Below, one piece after another: positions 105-55,000 of a stretch of 64,000 nucleotides of DNA. The translations under genes were made by a program, and so were the position numbers. The first letter of the stretch is position 1, and each line of letters opens with the position of its first letter. Source of the DNA: Parachlorella kessleri (taxonomy: Eukaryota > Chlorophyta > Trebouxiophyceae > Chlorellales > Chlorellaceae); NCBI GenBank assembly GCA_001598975.1, contig BBXU01002174.1, positions 1 through 64,000 of the forward strand, given 5' to 3'. The notes below the pieces were generated by a model. That model was not told the DNA's origin, searched no databases, and saw only the letters and a program-made list of their open reading frames with translations.

Positions 105-3100
105 GTCCAGGAGAGCGAGCGGCTCATGGCCAACCCTGCAGCCTTTGCCGCGCTGACCGCTGAGGAGCAGGCGGACGCGCAATCGGGCCTAGCCACGAAC
201 GAGCGCATTCTTAGAGCCGACTTCCAGCTGGCGTCAGTGTGCATTAAGACCATGCAGTACACCTCGGTGAGTCTCCCTGTTTTGTATTCCGCTCCCTCAA
301 GCCGTCCGTGACCGCCCTGTTCTGGGACTTATCACCACTATCAATCTCCATACCCATGTCTGTCTTGTGTGAAGGTGACTGGACGTGACTGCCTGTGCAG
401 GAGGCCCGCATTGTGGCGGCCCTGTTCTTCAAATACCAACACTAGGGAGCTTTATGACAGTATGAAGGTGATTGGACATGCCCTCCCCCTCCCCCTCCCC
501 ACGCAGGAGGACTGTGTTGTGGCGGCCCTGTTCTTTGACCCCAACACTAGCCATCTGAAGATGACTAAACATGAATGCCTGTGCAGGAGGACCGCGTTGT
601 GGCGGCCCTGTTCCCTTGGATTCCGAGCACCTGCCACCTGAAGGTGACTAAACATGACTGCCTGTGCAGGAGGACCGCATCGTGGCCGCGCTGTTCTTTG
701 AGGCGGAGGTGCGCGACAGGATGGCGCGCAACCTGGACTTCTTCCTCAAGTACCTAACGGGTGAGTCACCATGCTCTCACCCCTTGCTAATCCGTCTTGC
801 CCATGGCGCGGACCCTGGACTTCTTCCTCAAGTACCTAACGGGTGAGTCACCCTGCTCTCACCCCTTACTAATATGTCTTGGCCATATGGCACGCAACCT
901 GGACTTCTTCCTCAAGTACCTCACCGGGAAGTCACCCTGCTCTCACCCCTTACTAATCCGTCTTGGCCATATGGCACGCAACCTGGACTTCTTCCTCAAG
1001 TACCTCACAGGTGAGGCACCCTGCTCTCACCCCTTACTAATCGGTCTTGCCCTTATGGCATGCAACCTGGACCTTCTTCCTCTAGTACCTCACCGGTGAG
1101 TCACCCCGCTGTCACCCCCTACTAATTTGTCTTGGCCATATGGCACGCAACCTGGACTCCTTCCTCAAGTACCTCACCGGTGTGTCACCATGCTGTCACC
1201 TCTTACCAATCCGTCAAGTACCTCACCGGTAGTACCTCACCGGCAAGTCACCACGCTCTCACCCCCTACTTCCTCCCCAAGTACCTCACAGGTGAGTGAC
1301 CCTGCTGTCACCCCCTACTTCCTCCTCAAAATACCTCACCGGTGAGTGACCCTGCTGTCACCCCCTACATCTTTCTCAAGTACCTCACCGGTGAGTCACC
1401 CCGCTGTCAACCTATATTAGGTGACTGAGGGCTGCAAGACCCTGTGGAGTACTGCTGGGCCAGCAGAGAGTCCCTCGATTCTGTAGCCATAGCCATGACT
1501 ACATCCCCCCCCCTCCCCCAAACACACACCACCCCTCTTTCCCTTGCAGTGCCCGAGGAGCGCAGGCGGCTGCGGGTGCGTGATCCCGAGAAGTACAGCT
1601 GCCTCACCAGGGCCCTCCATTACATATCCGTTCTTAGTCTTGGATTACGGACTAAGGTCCCCCCCCCTTCCCGCCCTTGCAGTGCCCGAGGAGCGCAAGC
1701 GGCTACGTGTGCGTGACCCGGAGAAGTACAGCTGGCACCCCAAGGAGCTGATCAGCCAGCTGGCGCGCATACACCTCAACCTGTACCGCACCAACCCCGG
1801 ACAGTGGGCAGAGGTGAGAAGCTGCGGGGGATGAGTTGTTGCTCTCAAGGGGGCGAGGGGTGGTGGCTAGTCAGCTGGCACGCAGGCACCGGGCCCAGCG
1901 ACGCTCCTAAGCATCGCAAGGCGGTTGGCTGGGGCGAGGTGTGTGCTGAAATCAGGTGCGTTGTACTTTGGGGGCAGCTGTCAGTGTGCAGGGGTTGGGT
2001 TGCCAGCTGGCATGCTGACACGCCAAACATTACCGCTTTCTGTACCGCGCCTTTCTGTGGCAGTACATCAGTACATTGAAGCGAAGCAAGGGCATGGTAT
2101 GTGGGTCCTTTGAGCAAGCCAGCATCTGCAGCATACACCACCTGCACACACAGCAAGGCAGGGGCATCCCCCCCCACCACCACCACCAGCTGCGTGGCTG
2201 CTGCGCCTGCTGCACCCTGGCGTGACTCATTTCTGTTTTCCACTTTCCTTGTCGCCCAGGCCGTGGTTGCAGACAGAACTCCTACTGCAGGAACCTTGGC
2301 TGTGGAAGAGGTACTGGGCGTGCTGGCAGGACCAACATTCCTTCTTCCTTCCATCCAACGCCCAGGCCGCGGTGGCTGACGAGACCTTTCACAGCAGGAA
2401 GCTTGGGTGTGGAAGAGGTGCTGCGCACGGGGCATGACTTCTTCCCTCCTTTCTTTCTTCCCGCCCAGGCCGTGGTGGCTGACGAGAACTACTACGGCAC
2501 CACCCCCCAGATGTTCCCGGAGCTGCTGGGCGTGCTGCGCACGCTGGGGCTGGCGGACGCGCAGGACGTGGCTGACCTGGAGCGCATGGTGGCCCAGGTG
2601 GAGCAGGCGAGTCATGGGGGTCTAGTCATGGGGGTAGGGAGCGTGCTGCGCATGCTGGCGATGTGGTAGAGTGCCTTTTGAAATGTTTGCTGACCTGGAT
2701 CGCATCTTGTTACTTGAGCAGACCCCCTGCCAACTCGTTTGAGATGGAAATGCCCGTGACATGAAGGGGTCAGACAGCAGTTTGGCGGGTGCCAGCTGCA
2801 TCAAAGAGCAGGCAGCATTGGAAAGGGGGAACAAGCTGCAAGCACTTTGCTGCCCTCGCCTGCCCCCCTCCCCTGCAGACTAAGGCGGCGACTGCTGCGG
2901 AGGAGGAGGCCTTTGGCGAGATCCCCGACGAGTTTGAGGATCCGCTGCTTGGGGGCATCATGCGGGACCCTGTCAAGCTGCCGTCGGGTGAGTCATTGGT
3001 TAGCAGGGGGTGACTCAACCAGCAGATGCATGAGTTTGAGGACCCGCTGCTGGGTGGCATCATGCGGGACCCCGTCAAGCTGCCCTCGGGTGAGTCATGG

Positions 3101-4070
3101 GAATGAGTCAGCCGGCAGGTGCAGGAGTCGCCAGGGTGAAGTGCACTGAGACAGTGTGGAGGCCTGCTGCTGGGCGGCATCAAGCGGGACCTGGTCTAGC
3201 TGCCTCGGGTGAGTCTTGGGGTGAGCAGGGGATGAGTCAGCCGACCAGTGTACGGTTTCAGGTGAGGTGCCCTAAGACAGAGTGGGCATTCGCTGCTGGG
3301 CGGCATCTCGCAGGGGCCTTGCGAAATGCCCACGGGGCAGCACTTGGTCTGGCCGTGGGGGATAGTGATTCAGGTCAAAATCTTACTGTGCGGGCAGGCG
3401 CCATGTAAAAGCATTCCTAAGCTCCCTCTCAGCACAGCATGGACCAGTGAAGGTGCTGCTGGTGGGCAACTGTTTGATGATAAAGTTCCCTCGGCTATTT
3501 GGTAGTGGTGCATACAGCATAGCCAAGCCTGGGAATCATATTAGCAAGGGTGGCAGGTAGTGCGAGCAGGGTGTAAGAGTTAAGCTGGACGTACAATCAA
3601 ATGCCTGGCAGGAACTGTTTGCAGCGCGTCGCTTCTTGATGATGATGGCAACATCGTGGGTTACAAGGGACAGTGCTTGCCAGATTCTTGCTGTATGCAT
3701 TGACAAACAGTTCACAGCCCCCTTCCCTCCTTGGGCTGTGAAGGCACCAATGTGGCCGGCAAGGCCTGTGTGCCGGCAGCAGTCGTATGATTCTGTGGTC
3801 TGCGTTGCAACCATCTCCACCCAACTCCGCCACCTACCGTCCTTGATGCAAGCTGTCGTGACTAACTTGACTAAGGCCCGCCTCGTCTCCACTCTTGCAG
3901 GCAACATTGTGGACCGTAGGACAATTGTGCAGCAGCTGCTTAACGACCCACGGGATCCCTTCAACCGGCAGCCGATGAGCGAGGTGGATCTGGTACCCCA
4001 GCCGGAGCTGGCTCAGAGGATACGTGACTGGGTGGCACAGCAGCGGGCGGCCAGCCAGATGCAGGAGTAG
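105..4070 (+). CDS. UFD2: Ubiquitin conjugation factor E4 (UFD2/UBE4 type), C-terminal exons
   Basis: This is an E4/E3 ubiquitin ligase that extends ubiquitin chains, acting with E2 enzymes and CDC48-type segregases in the family. The exons I join are 105-266, 670-760, 1683-1813, 2469-2606, 2879-2987 and 3901-4070. They total 801 nt, or 266 residues, and phases agree at every junction. The first four match the conserved Ufd2 core, with landmarks FFLKYLT, RDPEKYSWHPKELI and AVVADENYYG. The last two make the U-box, from IPDEFEDPLLGGIMRDPVKL through NIVDRRTIVQQLL to DPFNRQPMSEVDL. A TAG stop closes the gene at 4068-4070. U-boxes lack zinc ligands, and no Cys/His pattern is seen. The family is usually about 1000 aa, so roughly three quarters lies upstream of the window. 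The intron at 2607 appears to use a GC donor. The introns are packed with copies of exon edges. Confidence 0.92.
395..669 (+). repeat. Tandem copies of the 5' edge of a UFD2 exon
   Basis: Three diverged copies of the acceptor plus first ~35 nt of exon 670-760 lie in the preceding intron, at about 395-430, 500-535 and 580-615. Each keeps the core TGTGCAGGAGGACCGC-like sequence followed by GTGGCGGCCCTGTTC. Spacing is about 80-105 nt. Each copy retains a usable-looking TGCAG acceptor. Confidence 0.85.
761..1410 (+). repeat. Tandem copies of the 3' edge of the same UFD2 exon with its donor
   Basis: This is a minisatellite-like array in the following intron. The unit is the exon tail CTGGACTTCTTCCTCAAGTA, then CCTCACCGG, then a GTGAGTCACC donor and a CTGCTCTCACCCC spacer. 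At least eight diverged units are present, at about 805, 885, 970, 1060, 1140, 1210, 1270 and 1320-1400. Most keep a GTGAGT donor. Units shorten toward the 3' end. Only the first unit (670-760) is preceded by a complete exon. Confidence 0.88.
1550..1612 (+). repeat. Partial copy of UFD2 exon 1683-1813 with its acceptor
   Basis: TTGCAGTGCCCGAGGAGCGC followed by the next ~45 nt duplicates the start of the real exon at 1683 with only a few substitutions. It even keeps the same reading frame (VPEERRRLRVRDPEKYS) before diverging. Only the second copy continues into the conserved WHPKELISQL segment, so I take the first as a decoy or an alternative short exon. Confidence 0.8.
2257..2440 (+). repeat. 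Two partial copies of the 5' edge of UFD2 exon 2469-2606
   Basis: GCCCAGGCCGTGGTTGCAGA (about 2257) and GCCCAGGCCGCGGTGGCTGA (about 2360) repeat the acceptor and first codons of the real exon, whose first residues are AVVADENYYG. The period is about 104 nt, and each copy is followed by a similar TTGG-GTGGAAGAGG spacer. Confidence 0.8.
2745..2850 (+). repeat. Dispersed repeat shared with 61590-61690
   Basis: This segment lies inside the last-but-two UFD2 intron. It has a core GGGGTCAGACAGCAG, a GGCGGGTGCCAGCTGC block and an ACAAGCTGCA end. The same order of blocks occurs 59 kb away at 61590-61690 in the same orientation. No coding potential is seen. Confidence 0.7.
3026..3330 (+). repeat. Tandem copies of the U-box exon 3' edge with donor
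   Basis: The sequence encoding EFEDPLLGGIMRDPVKLPS plus its GGTGAGTCAT donor (real exon 2879-2987) recurs at 3028-3100 almost intact. Increasingly degraded versions follow at about 3160-3215 and 3275-3330. The first copy would encode the same U-box loop residues. Confidence 0.85.
3536..3600 (+). repeat. Dispersed short repeat (GGTGGCAGGTAGTGCGA type)
   Basis: The core GGGTGGCAGGTAGTGCGA followed by GCAGGGTGTAAGAG matches a short interspersed sequence also found at 7466, 8830, 12299, 13400, 41715, 44780 and 59175. It sits in the last UFD2 intron. Function is unknown. Confidence 0.7.
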
Positions 4071-6813: not shown

Positions 6814-7282
6814 GTACCTCCCTGCAGGCGGACACCCCTGAACAGGTCGTGCAGGCTGGAACCCATGGCGTGTGCCTAGCCACGACAGGCGGGCCCCAGT
6901 GTAAAGTCAGTGGCAACCTTAGCTAAGCGGGTGGCCCCACGTTGTAGTCAGTGAGACCAGAGGATCATGAAAGCTGCGCAGTACAAAGATGGCAAGTGGA
7001 TTGGTACCTTACTCGCCCCTTTCCCGATATTGAACAGAGTAGTGAGACAGGTCAGTGCTGGGCAGCTGACTGCGCCTTAGAGAGCTGCTTATTGACTACC
7101 AAGTACCGCCTAGATCCTCACACACTGATCGCTCAGGGCGGGGTCTGCACATCTGCTGGCATCGGATCCAGGAACCTCGTGGTATTCCGCAGTACTGGGT
7201 CGACTAAACTGCTGAGTTGACACCAAGCGCGCGTCGCGCCTGATCCAGAGCAAAAATTCAACTGTTGGTGCACGTTTTTGTG

Positions 7283-7304
7283 AGTCCAAGGTTCTCCTTG
7301 GACT
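7283..7304 (-). promoter_or_regulatory. Conserved hairpin upstream of mTERF copy 1
   Basis: This is a perfect 9-bp stem AGTCCAAGG / CCTTGGACT with a TTCT loop, about 470 bp upstream of the copy 1 start. Homologous hairpins precede copies 2, 3 and 5, and a split one precedes copy 4. Its role (DNA cruciform, transcript hairpin or passive passenger) is not known. Confidence 0.6.
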
Positions 7305-7465
7305 GATGGGTTTTGGAACTAGGACTATATTGTCACTGCGAGATCCGTCCTGGAATTCTTTCCTGCCACTCTCGCGGCTAGGGTTAAAGTGCTTATTGGG
7401 GGTGGCAGGTGATGCGATCAGAGAGGAGGTACTGGGTTAGGGGCTGACAGGAGTATATGCAGTTA

Positions 7466-7540
7466 TTAGCATGGGTGGCAGATAGTGCGAACAGGGAGTG
7501 AGAGCTGGGCTGGTCTGGACTGACAGTTATGCTCTGTGCT
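7466..7540 (+). repeat. Dispersed short repeat
   Basis: GGGTGGCAGATAGTGCGAAC followed by AGGGAGTGAGAGCTGGGCTG matches the family whose copies lie at 3536, 12299, 41715 (reverse) and elsewhere in this window. Confidence 0.7.
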
Positions 7541-8083
7541 TACATTGGTTTCCAATAACAACGGAGCAGTGGTGGTTAGCAGCCTCAACCTAGACATGGC
7601 AGCGTTGGTTGGGCCCCACCAGGGTCCTGGCCCGGATACACCCTTGATGCACATGAAATTGGGCATGTTGCTGAGCGTTCAGACTTTCTGCTACAGCATG
7701 CCGCACCTGGATGTCGCTAACCAAAGTAACATATGTAAAGTAAACACGGGTATATGCAATACTGAAAGTTTAGCAACTGAAGGCAGCTGAGGTGGCTCAG
7801 GGCGTCTCGCTACACGATTTGAGCAGATACAGCCACACCAGGCCAACACCAACACTGCACCACCGGTCGGGCCTTGAGGGATCACTTACACTCAGGTGGA
7901 CTTGCGACTGCAACAGTCCCATGTCCGATGGTTGTGGGCATGGAGACCCAGGGGAAACAGCCGCGTGCACTCTAGGCTGGCGTTTGTTCGCGGCTCCAGT
8001 CAGGCAGAAGTCACGAGCGGGACGGAGTGCTGACATTTGAACTTGGTGAAGGAACCAGCCTTCAACAAAACGAAATGACAGCC

Positions 8084-11532: not shown

Positions 11533-11914
11533 CTAGCTCCCTGCAGGCAGACAGCAGAGACGAGGTCGATGCAGGCTGTTATAGGGTACTAATAGGCTAG
11601 GGCAAGACAGGCGCGGAACTCAGTGTCGCAGTGGCCACCTTGCTGAGCGCGTACCTGCACGTTGTGGTCAGTGGGTGGGTACAGCGAAACAAATTGCGCA
11701 GTACAAAGGTGGCAAGCCTGTATCTTACCTGTGCCTTCTGAAGCCGCTTGATCCACTACCCATGCATCTAAAGATTCTCACAGCCTCATCAGGCGGGTCC
11801 TGCAGGCATCGGATCAGGAGGTACCCCGCAGTGCTGGGTCCCAAACAATCGGAACAAGCGTACCTCGAACCTGATCAATAGCAGAAGCTAAACTGTTGGG
11901 TGCACGTCTTTTGG

Positions 11915-11936
11915 AGTCCAAGGTTGTCCTTGGACT
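11915..11936 (-). promoter_or_regulatory. Conserved hairpin upstream of mTERF copy 2
   Basis: The stem AGTCCAAGG / CCTTGGACT has a TTGT loop and lies about 385 bp upstream of the copy 2 start. It is followed by the same GATGGGTTT block as the hairpin at 7283. Confidence 0.6.
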
Positions 11937-12293: not shown

Positions 12294-12345
12294 AGTATGG
12301 GTGGCAGGCAGTGCGAACAGGGAGTGAGGCCTAGTTGCTACAGTT
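12294..12345 (+). repeat. Dispersed short repeat
   Basis: GGGTGGCAGGCAGTGCGAAC then AGGGAGTGAGG is the same core as at 7466, with the same downstream order of blocks up to about 12540, so here it is embedded in the duplicated spacer. Confidence 0.7.
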
Positions 12346-16890: not shown

Positions 16891-16928
16891 ATGAAGGAAC
16901 CAAGCTTCAACACAACTAGCCAACAGCC

Positions 16929-23898: not shown

Positions 23899-26800
23899 TC
23901 AGAGCGTGCTTGTCACGCCGCTGATGTCCGACCACCCTGCGTCGGACTTTGCGGGCGACAGCGGCCGCCGCAGGTGCGCGGAGTACAGCCCGCCGCTGCC
24001 AACGCCGCTGCTGTAGCCCGCCTGCAGCTCGGAGCTGTTCCCCACGCTCAGCTGCTCTGGCAGCTCCTGCGACAGTTGGTGGCGCTGGTAGTGCTGCTGC
24101 TGCTGCTGCTGCCCTGCCGCCTGCCGCTGCCCCCGCAGCAGCTCCTGCTCGCTCGGCCGCCTGGCCGGCGGGCCGGGCAGTGGCGGCAGCTGCAGATGAG
24201 GAGGGAGGCAGGCGTTGGCGGCGGCTATGTCGGCGCTCAGCTGCTTCCAGGCCTTTGCCAGACCCTTGCCTGCAGACAGAAGGTTAGAAACCCATGAGAA
24301 AAGTGGTTTGGCAAGTGTCGTGTGCCACACTCAAACCCAGTCAGGTAAAGATGCTGTCAGGACTGACGAGAAAAGAGGACGGGAGCAGGTTGCTGCAAGG
24401 ATTGACGCGACATAGCCACCGCCCTGTCTTATATTCTCTTCTCTCCAAAAATGGTTTCAGGTGCTCAGTAATGACAGGTGCCAGGTGCATGACAGGTGCA
24501 TGGCACGGTTCAGGCATTGCAACACATGCTGTCCTGTCCACAAAAAACAGACACCCCAGCCCACATGCTGTCACACTGCACCCAATCAATCCACTCTCCC
24601 AACCCCATCCCACACCTGACCGCCTGCCCGCAAAGCGTGCGCAGATGCGACGGAAGTCGGAGGCGGCTGAGGAGGCCACCTTGCTCAGCGCCTCCTGGTC
24701 CAGCAGGCCCATTCCGTAGGCCTGCAGCACATGCTAGTGACTGGGGTGTGGATATGGGCAGGGACAGCAATGAAGGCACCAGAGAACCAGCTTCTTCAAA
24801 GCCCTTCCTGGTATATCAGGCCCATCTTGCAGGCCTGCAACAGTTGTCACATACAGGAGTTGGACCCGGCAGAGACACAGATGAGGCGATAGAGACCCCA
24901 GCTTGCTCACCGTCTGCTGGTCTCGCAGGCTCAGGCCGTAGCCTGGCGCACAAGGACATGGCCAGGCCACCTTGCGATGCATTGGTGGCCTGGTGACCTT
25001 GCCTGGTGGCCTGGTGACCAATGCCCTGCAAGCGACTCCATGCTGTCAAATGCGTACTGCTCAGTCACAGCGCAGCTTACCTGCAGCGCCATGCCGACGT
25101 GCGTCTTGTTGAAGTAGATGTCGCGCTCCTCCCAGGCGGCTCGCCACGAGTCCTTGGTGCCCTTGGGTCTGGAGGCGCAACATGAAGAACTGGCAATATG
25201 ATGAAATAATTCTTTACTTGGTGAAACATTCCTCCAATGACAGCCACCCGTTCTAACAGCGCCAAGTTCACAGCATGCTACAGGGTAGCCGATGTCTTCT
25301 GATGGCCAACGATCAGCCTAAAATGCAGCAGAGAGACCACCAACCAAGGATCACCCACCTCAGCAGCAGCATGGAGTAAGTGTAGGCGGCAATGGCTTCT
25401 GCTGACTACAGTGCGTACCAGCATGCACAGCGAGACCATCAACCAAGGATCACCCACCTCAGCATCTATGGCACATGCTTATGCTGCTGCTGTGGGAAGC
25501 GAATTGATTGATTGAATAATTGACCCACCTCAGCAGCATGGAGTAGGTGGCTCCCAGGGGGACCACCTTGTGTATGAGGCAGGCCACGAGGCGGCTGGGA
25601 ACAGGGCAGTCGGCCCCCGCCACCACCCCCTGCCGCATGGCGGACCACAGCACCTCAGCGCACAGCACATCCCCCTGTAAAGCACAGGGCGCAAAGCATG
25701 CATGCGTTGTTCCAGCACGACAAATTGTTGCCTTGCGCCCGGCCTCCCACAATCCAGGCACAGCACCCTGACCGGTAAGGCCAGGCAATCTCGGGCCTAA
25801 CATTTTTTAAACCTACATGGCCATTTGATGCCACAGAGAACAAGCAGGTCTGCTGATGAGTTGTGTGAGGTACACATAGACCCTCGTGCGTCCAGCATTA
25901 CCCCTCCTCACCTGGCCGCTGTCCCCGATGAACACCAGGCAGACAATACTTAGCATCACTCTCCGCATCACCCGGCCATTGTCCTAAACATACACCAGGT
26001 ACACGATATACAACAGCCCTCCAACCCACCTGGCCGTTGTCCCCGATGAACACCAGGCAGGCCTCCGGGTAGATGGCCGCGTACTCCCGCGCCCGGCTCA
26101 GCTTCTTGGCCGCCAGCGTCTGGAACAGGGCGGTGGCGGCCGTTTGGGGGGCGGCCTCCGAGGCGGCAGCCCACAGGCCTGCTGTGAGCTTGTGCTTAAC
26201 GATCTTGGCGATGGCGCGGGGGCCTGCAAGCAAGCAACAGTGTCAAAGGAGGGCTGCTCAGAAGCCTGATGGGAGTGCTAAGGCTCTTACTGGCTGGCAG
26301 ATTTCAAACAATTGGGCCAAGAGCGGACACAGCCAGCCAGCAATCCTGCTCCTAACTTGTACTTGATGATCTGTACTTCATTGGTAACCCAGCTAGCTTA
26401 CTCTCATCGCATGCAGCCCGTCTATCACACCCCAAAGCACTTGCCTGCGCCCAGTGAGCCCAGGAGCAAGATGGGTGATAGACCCAGAGCCGCTCCACCC
26501 CGTGCAACCAAGAACACCATCACACCACAGCCATGGGGCGCTTGCCTGCATCCAGCGACCCCAGCAGCATGGTGGGCGAGGTGTCAAGGATGCCCCGGGT
26601 CACCATGGGCTGGAAGTACTTGCGGTACGCCTCGTTCTCGGTCAACCCCTGCACAACAGCCAAGGCAGGTTAAGGCTGGGTTTCGGGTTGAGGGAGTGCA
26701 ACTAGTTCAGCAAATCAATATGCACTGTAAGTACTTGAAGCATAGCTCGATCTCGGTCAGGCCCTGCAGAAGCCCAAAGCTTGGGGTGCCACGGGTAGCA

Positions 26801-29800: not shown

Positions 29801-31859
29801 AATCACAGCTGGTTGCCATTTGAGTTCACTGTCACACGGGCACTGCGACCAATCCCACCGACCCTCCTACAACATTAGGTCACACAGTAGGTCTAGGTCT
29901 GTGTACCTGGCCACCCTAAACAGTCATCGGGTAGTAGCATAAGCCATAGGACGATGCCATCGCCCGCACCTAATGTCGATAGCCAGCTCCCCGACCCTCC
30001 TTTCACACAGCAGGTTCAGCGTGTATCTGCTGGCCACGCTAACCAGCCATTGGGCAACAGCGACATCTTCCGCACCTGCTGACAGTTGCTAGCTCGGCGA
30101 CCCTCCTTTCACACAGCAGGTCCACTGTGTGCCCATTCGCCACCCTAAACAGCCTTTGGGCAACATTGACATCCACCGCACCTGCTGACGGTAGCTAGCT
30201 CGGCGACCCTCCTCTCACACAGCAGGTCCAGCGTGTGCCTGCTGGCCACCTCCAGCAGGGCGGGGGCATTGACAGCGCAGAGGATGTAGTTGAGCTCTGT
30301 CCCGCCTGCGCCCTCCAGCACAGCGTGCAGGGCGCGCTGGAGGCGCCGGCGGGTGCCCGACACGCGCAGCAACAGCTGCTTGGTGCCTGCTGTGTAGCCC
30401 TGGCCCTGCGACGCACAGTAGCAGAGGACGCCAGTTCAGTCGCCAAGGGTGCCAAGGGGGCAGGCACGTGTCAAACGCACTTCCCCGTCCCAGCACCACT
30501 TTCTCACCCAACCCCCGCCCTGTCGCACCCTGTTAATGGCGTTCAGGATGTTCATCAGCCGCTCCGCTCTGCCCTGTGCCACTCACTTCCGCGTCCCAAG
30601 CCTATTCGCACCCACCCCTTGCCCTGGCGCGCACCCTGTGGATAGCGCTCACAAGTCCATCAGTCGCTCCGGCCTGCCCTGCATTACACCCTCAGCAGTC
30701 ATCCTCTTCCACCCCTTGCCCTGCCGCGTTCACCCTGCTGATGGCGTTCACTATGTTCAACATTGATTGTTCGCTTTGTCCCGCCCAGCATAACAAATCC
30801 AAGGGGGTTACCCTGTTGATGGCGTTCACTATGTCCATGAGCCGCTCCGCCCTGCCCTGCGCCTCGGGGGTGTGGCACGCCGCTAGCAGCCGCTTGGACG
30901 CGTCGATCTCCAGCGCAGTCAGCCCCAGGGCCTTGCGCACCTCGTCCTCAACCACGCTGGCTGCCAAGACCTGCATGCCATGGGTGGGCCACCCAGGAGC
31001 CGCTTGGCCGAGCGCTCACAGGCATCAGTTTTGCCATGTGTGCCTCTGTCCGTAGCCGCCAGGCCTGGCGCATGCTGTTCACTTCCACGCTTGCCTCCTG
31101 GACCTCCCCATGGGATGGAAGGAAGCAGTGCGCAGAGGCAACAAGACAGCTGCTGCCCTAGGTGCAGAGAAAGGCTGGCAGAAAGCCCAGCTGGGCTGCC
31201 ACGCAACTCGCCAAGGGCACGCTGGCGCTGCCCCGCGCATACCCAGGCCTCCCAGTTGCTTCAAAAGCCATGCAGCAGGTGGACAAACCTATTAACCTAA
31301 ACAAACTATATACACCAAGTTGGTGCGAAGACTGCCCACGGCAGGAGGAGGGGTTGCTCACCGCTGACAGCACCACCCAGACCATGGAGAAGCCTTCCAG
31401 GCTCTGCAGCACCCGCACCAGCGAGAGCCCAAACGCGCACGACAGCAGGTACCAGAACACACGGCGCGCGGTGCGGCTGCAGGGCAGAGAAGGAATGGGT
31501 TCCTAAGGAACGGATTTGCAACACGCCCAGGTACCTCTTGCACGTAGCCCTGTCAGGCACAGACCGTCCACCAACACCACATCTACTGTACTATGTGCCA
31601 CCGCTGACAGACTCAGGACAACCCTCAACTACAGAATAGTGAGTCCACCAGCAGGAAAGCCGTCAGCTGAAACCTGGCACGGCTTGGGAGCGCAGTGGGA
31701 ACGGGGGCTGGGGACAGAGGCATGCACCTCTATTTGGCAGCCTTGTTGAGGAGCAACTGTATGCAAGCAGTGAGATGCCTACCTGACGTGCACGAAGGAC
31801 TTCTCTGCCAACAGGAACAGCACCAGGCACATGAACACGGCTGACAGCGACAGAAACAT
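23899..31859 (-). CDS. Membrane-anchored APP1-like (DUF2183) phosphatidate phosphatase-domain protein
   Basis: App1-type enzymes are HAD-superfamily phosphatases that turn phosphatidate into diacylglycerol. Exons in transcript order are 31859-31783, 31476-31362, 30970-30812, 30405-30182, 29623-29446, 29347-28797, 28435-28341, 27985-27051, 26648-26546, 26223-26030, 25674-25529, 25168-25081, 24721-24616 and 24269-23899. They total 3342 nt or 1113 aa, with every phase consistent. Residues 1-64 hold two membrane helices. The catalytic domain begins at the DxDxT motif SDIDDTLFCSGG (about 412-423), continues with YPGALALYAELD, LLSARPESYK (about 778), GSLDAGPRAIAKIVKHK and FIGDNGQGDV (about 877). 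A ~310-residue acidic, Gln/Ser-rich insert splits motif I from motif II. The C-terminus is Pro/Gln-rich. The exon at 26546 ends in a GC donor. The first exon could instead be internal, since an acceptor lies at 31880 and the frame is open upstream. Confidence 0.85.
24722..24990 (-). repeat. Copies of the 5' edge of an APP1-like exon
   Basis: The exon start at 24721 (plus-strand CAGGCCCATTCCGTAGGCCT then GCAGCAC) recurs at about 24812-24845 and 24915-24950 with the acceptor region. The copies are diverged, with a period of about 100 nt. Confidence 0.7.
25340..25528 (-). repeat. Copies of the 3' edge of an APP1-like exon with donor
   Basis: CACCCACCTCAGCAGCAGCA, the reverse complement of the exon end plus a GTGGGTG donor, occurs at about 25350 and again at about 25447. 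The real exon edge is at 25529. Each copy is preceded by CCAACCAAGGAT. Confidence 0.75.
25905..26029 (-). repeat. Copies of the GDNGQ-encoding exon edge with donor
   Basis: The exon end encoding VFIGDNGQ (plus-strand CACCTGGCCGTTGTCCCCGA then TGAACACCAGG) is present at 26028 onward in the real exon. It is copied at about 25911-25945 (nearly identical) and about 25968-26005 (diverged). Confidence 0.8.
29880..30181 (-). repeat. Tandem copies of an APP1-like exon 3' edge with donor
   Basis: A block of about 105 nt contains GCTAGCTCGGCGACCCTCCT, then TCACACAGCAGGTCCA and a CCGCACCTGCTGAC donor region. It recurs three times (about 29870-29970, 29975-30085 and 30085-30185) before the real exon (30182-30405). 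Confidence 0.85.
30530..30811 (-). repeat. Copies of the MDIVNAINR exon edge with donor
   Basis: The end of exon 30970-30812 (plus-strand CACCCTGTTGATGGCGTTCA then CTATGTCCATGAGCCGCTCC) is repeated at about 30528, 30630 and 30735 with increasing divergence. Each keeps the donor complement next to CCTG. Confidence 0.82.
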
Positions 31860-39729: not shown

Positions 39730-41539
39730 ATGTCCGCTTCAGGTGCAGTGGCACTGGCCGGCTCAGATTGGGGCCAGCTGTCTGCAGACATCTTGAGGCT
39801 CATCCTCAAGCACTTCACTGAGCAGCTGCATGGAATGACAGTGGAGCATGTTGCGGAGCTGGTTCGAGGACCTCTGCTTGTGAACAGGCACTGGCGGGCT
39901 GCAGCTATCTCCCAGGCAAGGTTGTATTCACATGTCCTTTAGACCGAACATACGCGGCTCGGAAACATAGTGCTTTGAGGAAAGGTGCTTGTATATAGTT
40001 TCGAAGACTTTGGCACAGGGCGCTGTAGTGTGACGACTGGGTGGGTGCCTTGCTGTAATGGCAGCTTACCTGTCCTTGCAGCTGGAGCTCCACCTTGTTG
40101 GCTTCGGTGAACAGCAGGAGCTCCAGTTGCTGCGAGGTATGGCTGCCACCTTCCCGCTAGTGTCCCTTGAGTTCTGCTACGGATGCAACAGCCGTGGTGG
40201 ACAAGCCGTCACGGGTCCCAATGAAGCAGCACCCAATGCTGCAGCAGCGCCCGCTGCTGTCATCGGACCTGCAGCTCCTGACGCTGCACAGCGCTCACAG
40301 CGGGTGTTTGAGCTTCTGGAAGACGAGTGCTTCCAGCAGCAAGTAGCTGGCACGCTGAGGCATGTCAGTGGCGTGCCTTGGAGGCGAAGCGTCAAGACAC
40401 AGGGTGGCCGCAAAGTGGCCATGAACTTTGAGCTAACTGCTTACCCACAGCTACGGAAGCTGCAGGCAAGAGTGTGTCCCTTGCCGCTGCAGGAGCTCAC
40501 CCTTGTGGCCTGCTGTGGTTCAGGCATTGTTGGCAGCTCACTACCCTGCAGCTCAACGAAGGATCACATGCCTTTGCTGACATTTGCTGCCTGGTTTGGC
40601 CACCGCTGTCTGGTTCAGCCATCATTGTCTTACGTGTTTGGTCCTACTTTTGTCTGCTGCAGTTGTCGTGGCTCAACCGCGCTACAATTATGCTTGACAA
40701 AGCCTTCTGGCAGCACCACAGCTGCTTGGAGGAGCTGGTGGTGGAGGTTGGCCCTTCCTACGGGGCAATACAGGTATGGTTGGCAAGCGGTGACAGCATG
40801 TTTGCTCCCTGCTTTGGAGCTGGTGGTGCAGGTTGGCCCTACCTACGGGGCAATACAGGTACCGCAGCTTGCTTGGGATTGCCTCGATCCCAGGCAGATT
40901 CTGGTTGAGCTAGTCCCTCTCTGTCCTATCGGGCAATGTATGTAATGAGACTCCCATACCCAGCACACCTGCAATACTGGCATATTCTCAACATGAGGGC
41001 CTGACGATCTGCAGGTGGAGTCGCGTCCACCCCAGCTCCAGCGCCTGACGATGCTTGGCCACACATCCTACCTGGCAATCCACCTGCCCACCCTGCTGCT
41101 ACGGCCTGGGCTTGTAATCTACCACACCTCCAGCGGCTGTGGCGGCAGCAGCACGCTGCACCTGCTGACACCTGTTGAGGTCCAAGGGAGAGACTATGGT
41201 GGCAGGGAGGCTCTGAAGCACCATGTGCAAGCGCTGGCGGAGGCGGCAGCAGCAGTAGCAGCGGCAGCGGTGGAGGATGTAGAGGGTGCACTTGGCCTGG
41301 GCGCCTGCCATGCTGTGTTTGACAAGCTGTGCTTTGCTGACGTGGCTGGGCGCTATCACAGCATAGTGGCAGAGAAGCACGAACATGGGGAAGGGTGCAG
41401 CTGCTGCCTGGGCGGCGTGCATGTCAGTATCACATTTGAGCAACACAGCTGCCGGGCCAACCCCGAGGGGGCTGGAGCTTGCCTTGTAGGAAGGCTTGTG
41501 CTTGAGTATCGAATGCTGGAACCAGCTATGACATGTTGA
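39730..41539 (+). CDS. F-box/LRR-like protein
   Basis: F-box proteins pair a substrate-binding region with SKP1-cullin ubiquitin ligases. Proposed exons are 39730-39915, 40082-40465, 40537-40773 and 41015-41539, totalling 1332 nt or 443 aa, all in phase 0. The N-terminus resembles an F-box (DWGQLSADILRLILKHF then VNRHWRAAA). Leucine-rich segments follow (LTAYPQLRKLQ joined to LTTLQLNE, CLEELVVEVGPSYGAIQ, LQRLTMLGHTSYLAIHLP). The C-terminal part is Ala-rich, then Cys/His-rich (HEHGEGCSCCLGGVH). Two introns (after 39915 and 40465) appear to have GC donors. Part of exon 3 (about 40570-40662) may be an additional intron. The F-box call rests on pattern only. Confidence 0.5.
40805..40865 (+). repeat. 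Copy of an F-box-gene exon edge with donor
   Basis: GAGCTGGTGGTGCAGGTTGG followed by CCCTACCTACGGGGCAATACAGGTA repeats the exon end at 40730-40776 with few changes, including the CAG/GTA donor. Confidence 0.85.
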
Positions 41540-44730: not shown

Positions 44731-45601
44731 GGTTGTCATTCAGCCACATCCAGGGTTGGCCTTTTGGCATTTAGTCAGGGTGGCTGGTCGTGCGAACACA
44801 GCTGAAGGCAAGTTGTAGTGACAGGGGCGATGCAACTATGCTCTGGGGCTTGCCTGAGCGCTGACCTTTTGGTATTAGTGGCTGGCAGTGCGGACGGAGG
44901 AAAGGTAGGGCAGAACTGTACTCCCATTTATAATGAGCCAAGGCTAGCTGCTGTGACCCTGTTGCCAGCAGAAGGGCCCCACTGCTGACTTCCTGCCTGG
45001 CAGGAGTGGTCAAGATGGGTGAGCTTATGGGTTGATGCGGCCGTCTCTGGGTGTTCTCCACATGTCCAACGGGCCCCTTGACCGTAGTTTTGTCAGCCCT
45101 TGTAACTCCCAGGCCTCATAGGCGCGGCCACAATGTGGCTGCATGGCCGAGCTGTAGGGCTGGTGTCTGCCAGCGCACAGGTCTACATGGGCGGTTTTTG
45201 CATCCAAGCGACTACCTTTGCAGCTTTGACGGCAACGTCACGGCTAACATGAACCCTACATCAGCGTCAGGACTAGTGACGTCCAGTTGGGGCATAGACC
45301 AGTGCACCTCTGGTTGGTACCCCTGCCTGGCCCCTGGCATCATCACCAACCCTCCAGCCAAGTGGGGAGCCGGGTAGGGCGCATATTGTCCAGCTCGCTT
45401 TTCTCCGCTGTCCCACAGCAGTGCACTTCTGGTACAAACTTAGGAGTACCCCTCCCTGGCCCCTCACATCTTCAGTGGCCCTCTAGGTGGCGGGTGCCTG
45501 GTAGGGTGCCCCCTTGTCCGCCTCGCCAAACTCTTTATGCCACAGAAGTGCACGTCTGGGGCAAACCTCGCAAGTACCCCTGTAGCGCATCAACACGTCC
45601 T
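44731..45601. other. Convergent intergenic region between mTERF copy 7 and ENR
   Basis: Two dispersed-repeat copies lie at about 44775-44850 and 44860-44935. From about 45290 the sequence is a tandem array of roughly 110-nt units resembling the terminal exon and 3' end of the ENR gene. No gene of its own is seen. Confidence 0.65.
45290..45601 (-). repeat. Tandem copies around the ENR terminal exon
   Basis: Units contain GTGCAC-TCTGG, AGTACCCCT and CCTGGCCCC, and at 45480-45535 a near copy of the terminal exon and stop (CTCTAGGTGGCGG, GGTGCCCCCTTGTCC, CTCGCCAAACTC) found for real at 45600-45660. The 3' end of ENR has thus been duplicated downstream. Confidence 0.7.
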
Positions 45602-48600
45602 CTAGGTGGCGGTGGCCTGGTGGGGTGCCCCCTTCTCCATCTCTCCAAACTCCTTCTCCAGGGTCTTGCTGTCGGTCGCCAGGCCCATCACTGCAGCAAG
45701 GCGCGGGCAATGCATGGATTACTCAATCGCACCGGGCACTTGACATTCCAAAGATGAAATGAACACTACCGCATGCGCTAAACGTTTCTACCAATGTCTC
45801 AAGCCCTCTATTGGGTCCTCTGGTGCCAGGTTGTCAATGGCTGAAGGCAGGCGGCAATGAGTGTGAGGGCAGCAGGGATAAGCATGCACAATCACATGGT
45901 CACAGCTAAGACCCTTGATAATTCCAATCCATGGAAGGTTGGTAAGCTGGGCAGATAGCACCCTGCTCTGCATTGTATGTGCTCAGGGATAGCCCCTGAT
46001 CTCAACGGTACACCCTTACACACAAAATAAAACCATGGGTAGTTTTCCAACATCCCAACAGCACCCAACAGGCCAGCACCAAGTTGGGGCAATCAGCTTT
46101 TGTTGGAGGTCTTTGGAGACACATGTGGTACCCTTCACGAGCTAGGCAGCACTCACCAGACAGTCCGTTGTCGCACCAGCACACGTGGCCGGTCACTGCA
46201 AGACAGGCGCCAGGAACTCTCCTTGAGAGAAGAACAGGATGAGACACCTGCGATGGCGGAATGACCCGCTGCCATGCGCTGAAGCTAGGCACAGCAATGT
46301 CCCTGAGGTTGTGTTGTGAATTTTGAGCCGAGACAAAGATCAAGGAAGCACAGAGCTGCCACAGCTCGTCCACTCGTTTGCTAAAGCCAGTCGTGTGCAT
46401 TCACCTGCTGAAGCCAGTGGTGAGCACAGGAAGGCTGCCAGGGCGCCCACCTCCATGGCCCGCATCTCCTTGTGGATGGGAGCATTGGCATGGGAGTAGC
46501 TGCAGGCGTGGGGAGGGTAGGAACGGGGGGAGAAGACCAGCATTGGCATGCCGGGGGCGGTGCCTGTCAGCTACGCTGGGTGTAGGGGCACGCTGACCGA
46601 CCAGGGCTGCCAGGGCTCCACTACTGGTGTTGTCGGACCAAGGGGCCCACCCCCCCAGCCAGCCCTGTTAGTGCAGTTTGCTCTTACCTTTCTCCACGCT
46701 ACCTGCCACCCTTGCCAAAACCCAGGTACTCCCAGATAGGTAGCACTGCTTACTTGATCATGTCATCAATGAAGCCGATGGCCTTGGCGGCCCGGCTGCC
46801 CAGGGGCCCAGCAGAGATGGTGTTCACCCGCACGCCCCACTTGCGCCCCGCCTCGTAGGCCAGCACGCGGGTATCACTTTGCAGGGCAGCCTGCTTGTAC
46901 GCAAACGAATTGACGGAATGGCATCAGAATGGGTGGAACCCCCACACCCTCTACGCCAGCCTGCAGGGTACTGCCTCTGACAGGTAGCATGCAGTTATGT
47001 GGGAGAGCCCACTAGCCCAAGCTTGGGTGAGCCCCGCTTGCGGCCAGCCTCGTGTCCAGGCCAGCACATGTGACATATGAGCACGAGCCATGCTGGCCTG
47101 GGGTGGGCACTGACTGCATGCAACTGTGGCAGCCTTCAGCACCTTGCAGGGACACGCCACTATGGCAAGTCGCTGGAAGGAGGACTGGCACATGCCACCA
47201 TGGCGCCTGGATCCTTTGCAAGCCTGGGGCATGGCTTGGTTCTGTAGCTGTCTCTTACCTTGGCGCTGCTCATGCCGCCTCCATAGCCGGGGATGACCCG
47301 GTCGGCGGCCTGGTAGGTCATAGACACCACCGCCCCACCCTCATTCATGTTGGGCCCAAAATGCTGCATGATGTGTCATAATGGGGCGGGGTTAGAAAAG
47401 CGGGGTTTATCCAATGCATTCCTGGCCTGGTCGGTCATGGACACCATGCCCCGCCCACTTTACGGGAAAATAATTGTCAGTCAGGGATCCTGACAATATC
47501 ACTATCGGTGTGTCAACAAGCAGCCGGGGCAGTAGGCTTTCAACCCTCATCACCGGCCCCCACCACCCTCCCACCCACCCACCCGCATCCTGAGCACCAG
47601 CGAGTAGGCAGACACCGCCACAGTTGCCAGGCGGCCCGCCTGGGACGTCTCCAGACTCATGGACACTCACCTACCTGCCCATGGTCACCCACCTGCATCA
47701 ACCCACCTGCATCATGGGCAACTACTTGCACCCACCCACCTGCATCATGGATACCAAGGAGTAGGCGGAAGCTGACACGGCTGCCAGGTACCCCGCCCGC
47801 GACGTCTCCAGCAGCGGCTTCTTCACCTCGGGGCCGTTGGCAAGGGAGTGCACCAGCACATCTATCCTGCCCCACTCGCTCCTGACCTGCAGTCAGGGAA
47901 GCCGGGGTGGGCATCCTGGGGTAGGTGTGTCGGTATGCAGGGAGTGACTAGGGGGCAGCCACCTGTGGGGATAGTCTGTCTGTAGCCCCTCTGCATGGCA
48001 GCGGCGTCCACCTGGCAGGACCCTCCCCAGTCAGGCTGGGATGGAACACCAGCAAGCACCCTTGAGGGCTGTAAATTAACAATTACGCGCAGGCCTCAAG
48101 GGCACAAGTGCAGCCTTGAGGACCTGAGTGGTGCCCAGCGAGTCCCGGAGGGTCCAGCAGGCAACATACGTGCGCACCTGCTCGGGCCCCTTCACTGCTC
48201 TTCACTGCCAACGAAAGCAACTGTGCTCAGAGGCAGCAGTCGGGCAGTGTTTGGGCTCGGGGCCGCTGGGGACACCATTTACACACACTTCCCTCACCTT
48301 CTCAGCTGTTTCCGACACTGTCCAGCCTGTGATGCCGGCATAGCGCTTGTTGCTTGCCACCTGAACAGGGAGCAGTGGGAGCTGGCTGACCAGCAACACA
48401 AACAGAAGCATGCATAATAGCCAGCTGCTGGATGGCCAGCAAGGCGGCAAGTCAAGTTGTGATTTGAAAGTCTACTGCCAGCTAGCTGCGGTCAGCACCA
48501 TTGACACCGTTCTGCAGGGGTTTTGCAAGGCATGCGCGAACCTCTAGGCAAGCTCTATCCTATACAGCCACACCCACATCAATGCTTGACGAATAGCCTT

Positions 48601-52001: not shown

Positions 52002-55000
52002 TCACACCTGCAGCTTGAACTTAATCCCAGGCGCAAACTTGGCCGCCACATCGTTGGTCCCTGCGTGGCCGGGAGTTGCATTGCCTGCGGCGCCTTCCTT
52101 CGTGTTGCCCCAGCCGCCCTCTGGTGCCTCACCTGCTGCGGCAGCAGCACCAGCAGCACGGCAGGAATAAGTGCGGAAAATAAAGAGCACTGCCTGCCAG
52201 GCTGCTGTACACACTTGCGTGACCACACAGCATCCCAGTTGCCTCTGCCACCTGCCCCTCCCCTATAACCCGTGAATCTAACACCCTTGCAATTGCTTCT
52301 GCTACGTGTACGCCCAGCTGGCCCCTCACCTGCTGCCGCCGCAGCGCCATCCTCGTCCACCGCGTACTGCATGGCCTCAGCCAGCTGTGCCTCGTCGGTG
52401 CCATGGTGCTCCGCCTCCGCCGCGGCCTGCTCGTAGCTGTGCACCATCTCGTCATAATCCAGGTGCTGCAGGGGGCAGTGCGCCTATGAGGTCAACACAA
52501 TGAGTTTGGCAGCCATCTGCGAGTGAATGATGCCACTGCCTGCTTGTAGCTGTGCACCATCTCGTCATAGTCCAGGTGCTGCAGGAGTTCCGCTCGAGAC
52601 GTCAACACACCCTTGAACCCCAACAATTCACTCTGCCCAGTGAGTAGGGCCCATGCTAGCAGACACATAGAAAGCAGCAATCTCTTCAGATCTCTTCAGC
52701 CTGCCCCACCTGCTGCCCGTCTTCCTCGCCTTCTGCAGGGGCAGGGGTGGCAGCTGCGGCCGACCGCTCCTCCCGCCTTGCGCGCCGGCTGCTCAGGCGC
52801 TCCTCCCTGCGGTCAGTGACCACCTTTCCTGCCAGTGGGTTGCGTACTTTGCAGGCATAACCTATTTCAGTAAACCCTTACTCATCACCCACCTGGCCTT
52901 GCTCCTGAAGGCGCCTACCTCCTCTTTCAGCAGCCCCAGGTCAGCCCACCATTATGCATCCCGTTCAAGCTGTCCTACCAAGCCCTTAGTCATCACCCAC
53001 CTGGCCTTGCTCATGAAGGCGGACACCTCCTCATTCAACAGCACCATGTTAGCCCTCCACCACGCATCCCGATCCAGCTGTCCTACCAAGCCCTTGGCCA
53101 TCACTCACCTGGCCTTGCTCATGAAGGCGGCCACCTCCGCGTTCAACAGCGCCAGGTCAGACCAACAATATAAATCCTTCTTGAGCTGTTCCACTGAATC
53201 CTTAGTCATCACCCACCTGGCCTTGCTCATGAAGGCCGTCACCTCCTCGTTCAGCAGCGCCAGGTCAGCGCTACGTTGTGTATCCCTTATGAGCCGCTCC
53301 AAGACTCTCATCATAGTCAACACCCACCTGGCCTTACTCATGAAGGCGGCCACCTCCTCGTTCAGCAGCGCCAGGTCGCCCTCGCGCTGCTTGACCTCCG
53401 CCTCGGCGGCCGCGGCAGCGGCGCGCCCCGCCGACAGCTTGGTGGTGCACTCCAGCAGCGCACCCAGCCACTGGCGGTACTTCCTGATTGTCTCCTCCTT
53501 GGTCTACGGGGCAGTTTCAGCGACAGTAGGTAGTGCTTGGAACGGATGACAGAGTGGCAGGTGTTCTGAGCAGACCTAGCAGGCAAGGTGCCCACTGCAG
53601 CAGGTGGCAGTCAGTGACTGACGGCAGATTTCAACCGCGCCCTCGTTGACCCAATGGCGTGCTGCTCTTCGAGTTTGAGCTCACAGCGTGCAGCCACCTT
53701 CTGCTGGCTCCCAGCCACGGGGCTGCTCCGCAAGGGTCCTTCGCGAGGGGCGCACTTCAAACGAAAATTGGAACTGCCCCGCCTCCTCCTCCTCCTGCTG
53801 GCTCACCAGCTGGCCCCTGTGCCCCGTAGAAGCCGCCTAACATGCCTGCCAAAACCTCATTTCACCTAACAGTTGTAGTGCGTCTCACCTTGAGCTGCCC
53901 TGCCGCCTCCTCTTGCTGGCTCTCCAGCTGGGCCTCCAGCTTCTCCCGGGACGCCTTGCCGGCCTTGAGCTCATTCTCCAATGCCTTGACCTGCTTCCAA
54001 TGCAGGCACAATGATAATTGCATCCATGCCCGCTGCTCTGGCCTTGATCTCATACTCCCCTGCCTTGCCCTGCAATAGCACATGCACACTCCTTCTCGGC
54101 TTCGTCCGCAGACCACAGGATGGCTCAGTTAACAGTCGACTCCACAAAACCCCTCCATAACGCGTGATGCCTGCTACGTCCCACCCTAAGTGTCACTTCT
54201 GCCTGGCGCAGCCATTGACTCAGATGGTTGCACAAACCATGACAGAGGACGACTCACCCTGAATGTGAGCTCCGCCTCCGCCTTGCGCAGGCGCATCATC
54301 TCCTTCTTGACCGCCTCGCTGGAGGGCGGCTGCTTGGCTGCAGCAGGAGAACCAAAGGTTCATCACAACCTGGTCACGTGCTGTGGCCATCTCTATCCCT
54401 TGGATAGGTGACGAGGTCATGGAAGAGCGTGACGAGGTCATGGAAGAGAAGACTGTTCGGGTGGCGCACCAGACACCTGTGCTCTGGCCGGGCAGCTCTG
54501 GGAGCTTCCGCCCGCCTAGAGTGCAGATAGGACCGCTGTGCAGCATCTCCAGACCAAACGCCTGGGCCGCCCCGCCATCTGCCTGTGGTACAGTCCCGCT
54601 CCTCCTGCGCCCTGCCCCTCCCCACCCGGAAGAACTATCAGATACACGCTATATATTACAGACCGACCCTGCAGGCAGCCAGCCAGCAGGCAGGCGGGCT
54701 GCCCTACCTGAGCCGCCTTTAGCCTTGTCGGCGGTGCCCCGCTCCCGCTCTGCTCGGTGCTCCTCGCCGGCAGAGGACTCAGAGGGGCTGCCACTAGAGT
54801 AGGAAGGCGAGCGCTCGCCGGAGGAGCTGCACGCAAAGCCGCCACTAGAGAAGGATTGCTAGGGTTGCAGGAGAGACTGCCGAAGGGGGTGGGAAGGCGG
54901 GCGCCCGCGGCACACATCCTGGTGGCGAAGGGAGCTTGGGGGTTTTCCAACTACCTTGCAACATAGGCTCAACGATCTAGGGCAGAAACAGGAACACGGC

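What the first reader, a model, noticed from the sequence alone, without database searches (positions are those of the whole stretch)
369..53330. Exon edges with splice sites are tandemly copied into neighbouring introns in most genes of the window
In the UFD2, APP1-like, F-box, ENR and RRM genes, the terminal 30-60 nt of an exon plus its donor or acceptor is repeated one to eight times in the adjacent intron, with a period near 80-110 nt and growing divergence away from the exon. Both 5' and 3' exon edges are affected. The mTERF genes seem spared. This creates ranks of decoy splice sites. It could arise from slippage seeded at splice junctions, from reverse-transcribed splicing intermediates, or from a selected splicing or regulatory role. 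I know of no standard name for such a genome-wide pattern.
Basis: partly seen in the sequence, partly recalled or inferred. Interest (0 to 1): 0.85.

Follow-up and report, generated by a model that had tools for sequence, protein, structure and literature searches.

The report
Exon edges repeated inside algal introns
In several genes of a green alga, the ends of exons together with their splice sites have been copied again and again into the neighbouring introns by short tandem DNA duplications, which lengthens introns and fills them with look-alike splice sites that the cell apparently has to ignore.

Summary
The repeats are real. In UFD2, the APP1-like and F-box-like genes, ENR and RRM, 17 of 39 introns carry tandem copies of an exon edge with its splice site (12 donor edges, 9 acceptor edges); 14 mTERF introns carry none. 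Spacing is mostly 50-130 nt. Units run from exon into intron in genomic order: genomic tandem duplications, not reverse-transcribed splicing products. Copies decay like neutral sequence (mismatches 8.9, 11.6 and 20.0% at codon positions 1, 2, 3). Four tandem oxidoreductase paralogues on the same contig, outside the window, show 10 edge duplications and no interior-only ones in 24 introns, six of them in one paralogue only. Random placement plus loss of exon-disrupting duplications predicts 54-56% edge events, so junction-spanning duplications look over-represented in these genes. Twenty other loci with ab initio exon models show no clear excess (9 edge, 5 interior gapped; 3 and 8 ungapped), so a genome-wide rule is not established. 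Best reading: short tandem duplication, probably by break repair, sheltered by splicing, with an unexplained gene-specific bias to junctions. A selected role is not supported; use in RNA was untestable.

The parts
369..705 (+). UFD2 intron 1 acceptor-edge array: exon-edge copies begin at 401, 507 and 587; real exon begins at 670
721..1412 (+). UFD2 intron 2 donor-edge array, about 8-9 copies, period 82-85 then 49-50; real junction 760|761
1541..1745 (+). UFD2 intron 2 acceptor-edge copy (TTGCAG ending at 1549, exon-like from 1550) and real exon start at 1683, offset 133
2253..2492 (+). UFD2 intron 3 acceptor-edge copies at 2260 and 2366; real exon at 2469
2930..3335 (+). UFD2 intron 5 donor-edge copies, offsets 102 and about 221, with a further decayed unit; real junction 2987|2988
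24616..24960 (-). APP1-like intron 12 acceptor-edge copies (offsets 113, 222), diverged
25329..25550 (-). APP1-like intron 11 donor-edge array (GAGGTGGGT sites)
25909..26062 (-). APP1-like intron 10 donor-edge copies (offsets 58, 118)
26437..26580 (-). APP1-like intron 9 donor-edge copy (GC donor copied as GC), offset 101
26610..26771 (-). APP1-like intron 8 acceptor-edge copy, offset 115
26840..27166 (-). APP1-like intron 8 old donor-side copy, offset 268, splice site lost
29586..29701 (-). APP1-like intron 4 acceptor-edge copy, offset 75, 93% identical segment
29955..30251 (-). APP1-like intron 4 donor-edge array, offsets 106, 212
30526..30865 (-). APP1-like intron 3 donor-edge array, offsets 78, 177, 283
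40731..40861 (+). F-box-like intron 3 donor-edge copy, offset 85; real junction 40773|40774
45317..45655 (-). ENR last exon: coding end with stop codon copied into the 3' flank (45480-45536 is a copy of 45599-45655). Edge of a coding sequence, but not a splice site
   Evidence: sequence read
47307..47446 (-). ENR intron 4 acceptor-side copy, offset 117, splice site lost (ungapped call only)
47572..47811 (-). ENR intron 4 donor-edge copies, offsets 33, 157
52419..52585 (-). RRM intron 10 acceptor-edge copy, offset 113
52862..53381 (-). RRM intron 9 donor-edge array, four copies, offsets 111, 219, 327, 435
53785..53934 (-). RRM intron 8 donor-side copy, offset 118, splice site lost
53961..54073 (-). 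RRM intron 7 acceptor-edge copy, offset 79

Best explanation
Short stretches of genomic DNA, mostly 50-130 bp, are duplicated head to tail (shown). When the stretch straddles an exon-intron junction, a copy of the exon edge with its splice site ends up inside the intron. The mRNA is unchanged as long as the cell keeps using the outermost donor and outermost acceptor (inferred; no RNA data). Splicing therefore shelters these duplications, whereas ones inside exons are lost. The copies then drift nearly as neutral sequence (shown by codon positions), can be re-duplicated into arrays, and lengthen the intron. The likely source is fill-in repair of staggered breaks or paired nicks, or replication slippage (inferred from published mechanisms). 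On top of this, in the five window genes and four neighbouring paralogues, junction-spanning duplications are more frequent than my random-placement model predicts (statistical; cause unknown).
For: In 10 of 17 arrays at least one pair of units matches in the intron half (z of 2 or more). In the 10 real-copy pairs with z above 3, exon halves average about 89% and intron halves about 78% identity (my averages), near the two-fold divergence ratio expected when one partner is frozen. Mismatches at codon positions 1/2/3 are 34/384, 44/378 and 75/375 over 26 copies. Periods show no preference for multiples of three (12 of the 31 listed, counted by hand). The same kind of duplication occurs in intron interiors and intergenic DNA elsewhere, with offsets mostly 43-130. 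The ENR stop-codon edge was copied too, so a splice site is not required. Four paralogues (mean exon identity 0.78-0.89) differ at homologous introns: the 113>84 intron is 172 nt without copies in P1, 594 nt with a donor copy in P2, 388 nt with an acceptor copy in P3 and 896 nt with a donor array in P4. Whole-genome searches with the UFD2 unit and an RRM exon hit only local copies.
Against: The edge excess is not predicted by random duplication: 54-56% expected. The window's ungapped count is 21 edge families, and its one interior call turned out to be the far end of the UFD2 intron 2 edge array; the strict gapped count is 21 edge and 2 interior. In 9 of 17 events the intron half of the nearest pair is unrecognisable although 2.4 were expected, so simple decay is not the whole story. 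mTERF genes are spared although their intron 1 has diverged to a mean of 61% between paralogues. No RNA evidence shows that the outermost sites are used.
Confidence: 0.72

Rival explanations
1. A duplication process aimed at splice junctions: something tied to transcription or splicing (R-loops, stalled polymerase, spliceosome or nucleosome edges) makes breaks or template switches there, so exon edges are copied preferentially.
For: With an expected share of 0.56, 21 of 21 edge families (ungapped) has P about 5e-6 and 21 of 23 (gapped) about 3e-4 (both by hand). The paralogues, not chosen for the feature, show 10 edge and 0 interior-only families; the model gives 0.011-0.015 for at least 10 of 11. 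If two pairs shared by two paralogues count once, 8 of 8 is about 0.01 by hand.
Against: Twenty other loci show 9 edge and 5 interior (gapped) or 3 and 8 (ungapped). Five chaperonin genes show 2 edge and 3 interior, two of the latter starting 3-5 nt before the junction. The ENR stop-codon edge is also copied. Centring of the unit on the junction is seen with ungapped extents (sd 0.11) but not with gapped extents (sd 0.21). The gapped and ungapped methods share only 15 of 27 window edge calls.
Confidence: 0.35
2. Nothing but random short tandem duplication plus purifying selection and slower decay of copies whose partner is a constrained exon; the window is an extreme draw.
For: The other loci and chaperonin genes fit the null: at least 16 edge of 27 has P 0.07-0.86 across settings (counts pooled). 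Interior and intergenic duplications of the same size exist. The window was picked because it is striking.
Against: For the observed ages three decay settings give an expected edge share of 0.54-0.56; at single ages up to K=0.20 it is 0.28-0.69, and only at K=0.25 does it reach 0.81. The window and the paralogues both exceed it.
Confidence: 0.3
3. Selected role: the ranks of extra splice sites act as decoys or switches that tune splicing or expression.
For: 24 of 26 copies keep the splice dinucleotide, slightly more than the 19-21 that 10-15% divergence would leave (by hand). Copies score only a little below real sites: donor 5.1 (n=23) against 6.2, acceptor 5.4 (n=10) against 6.4. Exon halves are better kept than intron halves in part of the events.
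Against: Copies differ at codon positions 1 and 2 about half as often as at position 3, as expected for a neutral copy of a frozen exon. The copies counted were found by similarity across the junction, which favours kept sites. Paralogues lack many of each other's copies.
Confidence: 0.08
4. Reverse transcription of splicing intermediates or RNA fragments, reinserted next to the exon.
For: Some events copy the exon edge and splice site with an unrecognisable intron half (F-box-like intron 3, APP1-like intron 10).
Against: Direct tandem position and genomic order across the junction; intron halves alike in 10 of 17 arrays; the UFD2 unit and RRM exon searched have local copies only.
Confidence: 0.03
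5. Assembly artefact.
For: The reads are not available; the contig is one of 1642.
Against: Exon halves of copies differ from the real exon by about 3-32%, in many introns on both strands, while exons stay open; similar duplications appear on other contigs.
Confidence: 0.02

Closest known systems
Tandem genomic duplication across an intron-exon boundary in a potato RNA-dependent RNA polymerase gene (PMC4974935; abstract and passages seen)
   Same: A genomic tandem duplication that crosses an intron-exon boundary and copies the acceptor with its context.
   Different: There one event created a new intron that is used. Here many introns hold unused-looking, decaying copies, at donors as well as acceptors, often in arrays, with no new intron inferred.
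Rogers model of intron gain by duplication of an AGGT-containing exon segment (as described in PMC4974935)
   Same: Tandem duplication supplies extra GT and AG sites.
   Different: The unit here includes intron DNA and an existing junction, and the copies lie inside an existing intron.
Small tandem duplications from staggered-break repair (PMC8355091; PMC5730883; passages seen; rice and Arabidopsis cases are cited there)
   Same: Short head-to-tail duplications made at breaks.
   Different: No enrichment at splice junctions is described in the passages I saw; here the event itself was not observed and the bias is gene-specific.
Long introns of Chlamydomonas and relatives (PMC8226300, passages seen)
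   Same: Median intron lengths 198-343 bp, with the reason for lengths above the minimum left open there; the median of 308 ab initio introns here is 282.5.
   Different: The passages seen do not mention exon-edge duplications as a cause.
Introners and other intron-creating elements (recalled; PMC9860276 seen only as a listing with the start of its abstract)
   Same: Repeated sequence with splice sites inside genes.
   Different: Introners are dispersed copies of one element; here each copy derives from its own neighbouring exon.

Membership tests
Short tandem genomic duplication | Head-to-tail direct repeat at the same locus | tested here: met
   reverse complements of donor-side exon ends match introns in 0 of 308
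Short tandem genomic duplication | Unit copies contiguous genomic DNA, both sides of the junction | tested here: met
   Met in 10 of 17 arrays; in 9 of 17 the nearest pair is unrecognisable in the intron half
Short tandem genomic duplication | Presence/absence at homologous sites in relatives | tested here: met
   Four tandem paralogues, 24 introns, 10 edge events, 6 of them in one paralogue only and 4 in two pairs that may be inherited
Intron gain by tandem duplication (Rogers/potato type) | A new spliced intron arises between the copies | not testable with these tools
   No RNA data; ENR homology fits the ordinary introns with no extra exon included
Introner or mobile intron | Related copies dispersed over many genes | tested here: not met
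   UFD2 unit and RRM exon match only locally, ENR exon only itself; other arrays were not searched
Retrocopy of spliced RNA | Exon-exon junctions or loss of intron sequence in the copy | tested here: not met
   The copies stacked run from exon into intron or intron into exon; no systematic search for joined exons was made
Functional alternative splice-site array | Copies constrained in sequence | tested here: not met
   Mismatch pattern fits neutral decay
Functional alternative splice-site array | Copies used in transcripts | not testable with these tools
   No RNA data held

The most novel reading that the evidence does not exclude
Splice junctions themselves are hot spots of tandem duplication in this alga: a process tied to transcription or splicing copies about 100 bp around the junction over and over, in certain genes, and this is a main way their introns grow. 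Introns would then carry a fossil record of their own exon edges, and every such gene would live with ranks of credible decoy sites that the spliceosome must pass over.
Probability: 0.35. Interest if true: 0.85.

Novelty: new variant of a known kind. Interest (0 to 1): 0.62.

Why it matters
It offers a concrete, datable route by which introns lengthen, a point left open for Chlamydomonas-type genomes. It also gives a natural experiment on splice-site choice: close copies of real donors and acceptors lie mostly 50-130 nt from the real ones and are apparently ignored, the real site being the outermost. If the junction bias holds genome-wide, it would link splicing or transcription to duplication mutagenesis, which becomes directly testable in an alga.

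Tried and rejected
Centring of the duplicated unit on the junction: strong with ungapped extents (sd 0.11 against 0.22-0.25 simulated), weaker if at least 37 nt of intron must remain (P 0.02-0.04), absent with gapped extents (sd 0.21). I do not rely on it.

First simulations with one age and short indels only were followed by gapped detection with large indels and the observed age mixture.

Counting limits. The one 'interior' family in the window genes is part of the UFD2 intron 2 edge array. The two gapped 'interior' calls (APP1-like introns 3 and 11) are arrays whose units include the exon edge by the ungapped and stacked views. Ungapped and gapped window edge sets are 21 each, 15 shared, 27 in union; six gapped-only calls include weak ones such as ENR intron 1 at 64%. 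The gapped count also drops introns where one alignment runs from exon to exon, as in L038 8354-8893, and skips introns over 1300 nt. It therefore undercounts edges outside the window too. Introns with a flanking exon under 40 nt were not counted.

Exon halves kept better than intron halves first looked like selection; codon positions argue against it, and loss of intron halves by larger indels may explain it. Left out of the codon-position count: UFD2 intron 2 offset 335 (out of register), UFD2 intron 5 offset 221, one APP1-like intron 3 copy, the near copy of APP1-like intron 10, APP1-like introns 11, 12 and 8 (donor), UFD2 intron 3 far copy, the further UFD2 intron 2 copies, and the ENR offset-33 and acceptor copies.

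Haematococcus as the source: ENR is 73% identical there against 76-77% in Chlamydomonas and Edaphochlamys. PMC7617258 (abstract and passages) does not mention exon-edge copies in what was shown.

Haplotigs for polymorphism: none found with the UFD2 unit, one RRM exon and one ENR exon. Tetranucleotide profiles of 23 loci correlate 0.92-0.98 with the window, so a foreign contig is not indicated. Two early attempts at a training set for the gene model gave too few or too biased genes, and one alignment script failed and was replaced.

Nine of the ten allowed paper searches listed no paper whose title or abstract start describes recurrent exon-edge copies in introns; subscription papers are not held.
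Full report
What is there. The window is bases 1-64000 of a 119,630-bp contig in a 50.9-Mb, 1642-contig genome. Donors (CAG|GTGAGT) and acceptors (TGCAG|G) from a self-trained gene model and the ENR protein, 77% identical to Chlamydomonas reinhardtii over 291 aa without a gap, suggest a chlorophyte green alga. None of the 120 listed ENR relatives exceeds 78% identity, so the species is probably not in that collection.

Local self-comparison shows 93 repeat pairs covering 7.3% of the window against 0-5.6% in 20 other loci; 85 of the 93 lie in the five named genes. On curated exon models the pairs are exon edges: the last 20-70 nt or so of an exon with its donor, or the first 20-60 nt with its acceptor, repeated one to about nine times in the adjoining intron. 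Over 42 introns (39 in the five genes, 3 in a Tim17-like gene) the ungapped count is 12 introns with donor-edge, 9 with acceptor-edge and 1 with interior families, the last being the far part of the UFD2 intron 2 edge array. So 17 of 39 introns are affected. Fourteen mTERF introns give 0, 0 and 1. The gapped count over the same 42 is 11, 10 and 2; the two are arrays in APP1-like introns 3 and 11 whose units reach the exon edge in the other views. The two methods agree on 15 edge calls of 27 in union. A 21-nt interior repeat in RRM intron 6 lies below the smallest offset counted. Shuffled controls give 0 of 42.

What the unit is. Stacked and aligned copies show intron sequence duplicated together with the exon edge in 10 of 17 arrays, for example those of UFD2 introns 1, 2 (donor), 3 and 5, RRM intron 9 and APP1-like intron 4 (donor); in APP1-like introns 3 and 11 the intron halves match between copies but not with the real unit. 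In 9 of 17 nearest pairs the intron half is not recognisable, more than the 2.4 expected from the exon-half divergence. The copies sit head to tail and point the same way as the exon; reverse complements of donor-side exon ends score above threshold in 0 of 308 introns. Searched over the whole genome, the UFD2 unit and one RRM exon hit only local copies and one ENR exon hits only itself. These look like genomic tandem duplications, not retrocopies or mobile introns.

How the copies evolve. Over 26 copies, mismatches to the real exon are 34 of 384, 44 of 378 and 75 of 375 at codon positions 1, 2 and 3. If the copy is free and the real exon can change only at silent sites, positions 1 and 2 record one lineage and position 3 two; the observed ratio is about two. 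Splice dinucleotides persist in 24 of 26 copies, a little above the 19-21 I would expect by hand, and copy sites score a little below real ones. I read this as nearly neutral decay that leaves credible decoy sites. The real donor is the most upstream and the real acceptor the most downstream of its rank, by construction of such a duplication.

Is the edge preference real? If duplications fall anywhere and only those that spoil an exon are lost, many will span a junction anyway. I simulated that on intron templates with the observed periods. The expected edge share among detectable events is 0.28-0.69 at single ages up to K=0.20, 0.81 at K=0.25, and 0.54-0.56 for the observed age mixture, also when decay is strong enough that about half of the intron halves become unrecognisable. 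Against 0.56, 21 of 21 (ungapped) has P about 5e-6 and 21 of 23 (gapped, disputed arrays counted as interior) about 3e-4, by hand. The window was flagged for this feature, which weakens such figures.

Independent material. Contig positions 64-94 kb hold four tandem copies of a zinc-type oxidoreductase gene (Pfam ADH_N and ADH_zinc_N in copy P4, the one scanned; the exon sets joined for the four copies have no stops). In 24 comparable introns there are 3 donor and 7 acceptor edge families and no interior-only one, with 0 calls in 24 shuffles; one intron has an interior pair beside an edge array. Six of the ten are in one paralogue only; the other four form two pairs (donor of 113>84 in P2 and P4, acceptor of 84>92 in P3 and P4) that may be inherited. 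Two of the ten are weak, about 71% identical. Duplications were thus gained repeatedly after gene duplication. The intron between the 113- and 84-nt exons is 172, 594, 388 and 896 nt long in the four copies, and the three long ones are those with duplications.

Against a genome-wide rule. In 20 contig-start loci, 247 ab initio introns give 2 donor, 1 acceptor and 8 interior families ungapped and 4, 5 and 5 gapped (243 were short enough). In five chaperonin genes located by Pfam 49 introns give 2, 0 and 3, two of the three starting 3-5 nt before the junction. These fit random placement. Exon models there are weaker than in the curated genes, and the gapped count misses some edge arrays (L038), so the difference may be partly technical. 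Density also differs sharply: 17 of 39 introns in the affected genes against a few percent in the other loci, and no edge copies in mTERF genes, whose first introns have kept 173-188 nt while diverging to a mean of 61%.

Likely mechanism. Duplications of this kind are known products of repair of staggered breaks with fill-in synthesis (PMC8355091; PMC5730883; passages seen). Splicing then hides junction-spanning copies. This accounts for both edges, direct tandem order, lack of a frame preference, the ENR stop-codon copy and near-neutral decay. It does not by itself account for the excess at junctions or for the choice of genes; that part is open and is the novel element.

Prior work. The nearest precedent found is a single junction-spanning duplication in potato that made a new intron (PMC4974935). 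Nine paper searches listed nothing that reads as recurrent exon-edge arrays. I therefore rate it a new variant of a known kind.

Noticed in passing
window 4300-22580 (-), 36697-44730 (+): Seven mTERF-like genes of one three-exon design in two orientations (Pfam was run on one), with first introns of stable length; a local expansion.
   Followed up: partly
window 32174-35020 (-): A block of about 1.4 kb is repeated once at an offset of roughly 1.41-1.48 kb, pieces 76-96% identical, with exon-like parts; possibly a duplicated gene fragment.
   Followed up: no
window 15757-15850 and 20085-20160: A pair of inverted segments around AGAAGAAG/CTTCTTCT repeats, about 4.3 kb apart, flanking an mTERF gene; seen by eye only.
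   Followed up: no
window 49500-50020 (-): Broken reading frames reminiscent of a retroelement reverse transcriptase end (impression from the translation; no search was made).
   Followed up: no
window 62488-63978 (-); L037 and L038: Genes made of coding repeats of about 76-79 aa; the stretch 62488-62963 matches the helicase-associated domain (PF03457), and L037/L038 hold long exons with 222-240-nt repeats.
   Followed up: partly
L029-L031 (contig 64-94 kb): Four tandem zinc-type oxidoreductase genes with the same exon plan, a natural series for dating intron changes.
   Followed up: yes
L038 8253-9080: Another gene with a donor-edge copy, an acceptor-edge array (period 93-99) and a further donor-edge copy; the gapped count missed this intron because one alignment spans both exons.
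   Followed up: partly
window 2607, 26224, 55750, 39916, 40466: Several introns start with GC; the GC donor of APP1-like intron 9 (26224-26545) is copied as GC.
   Followed up: no
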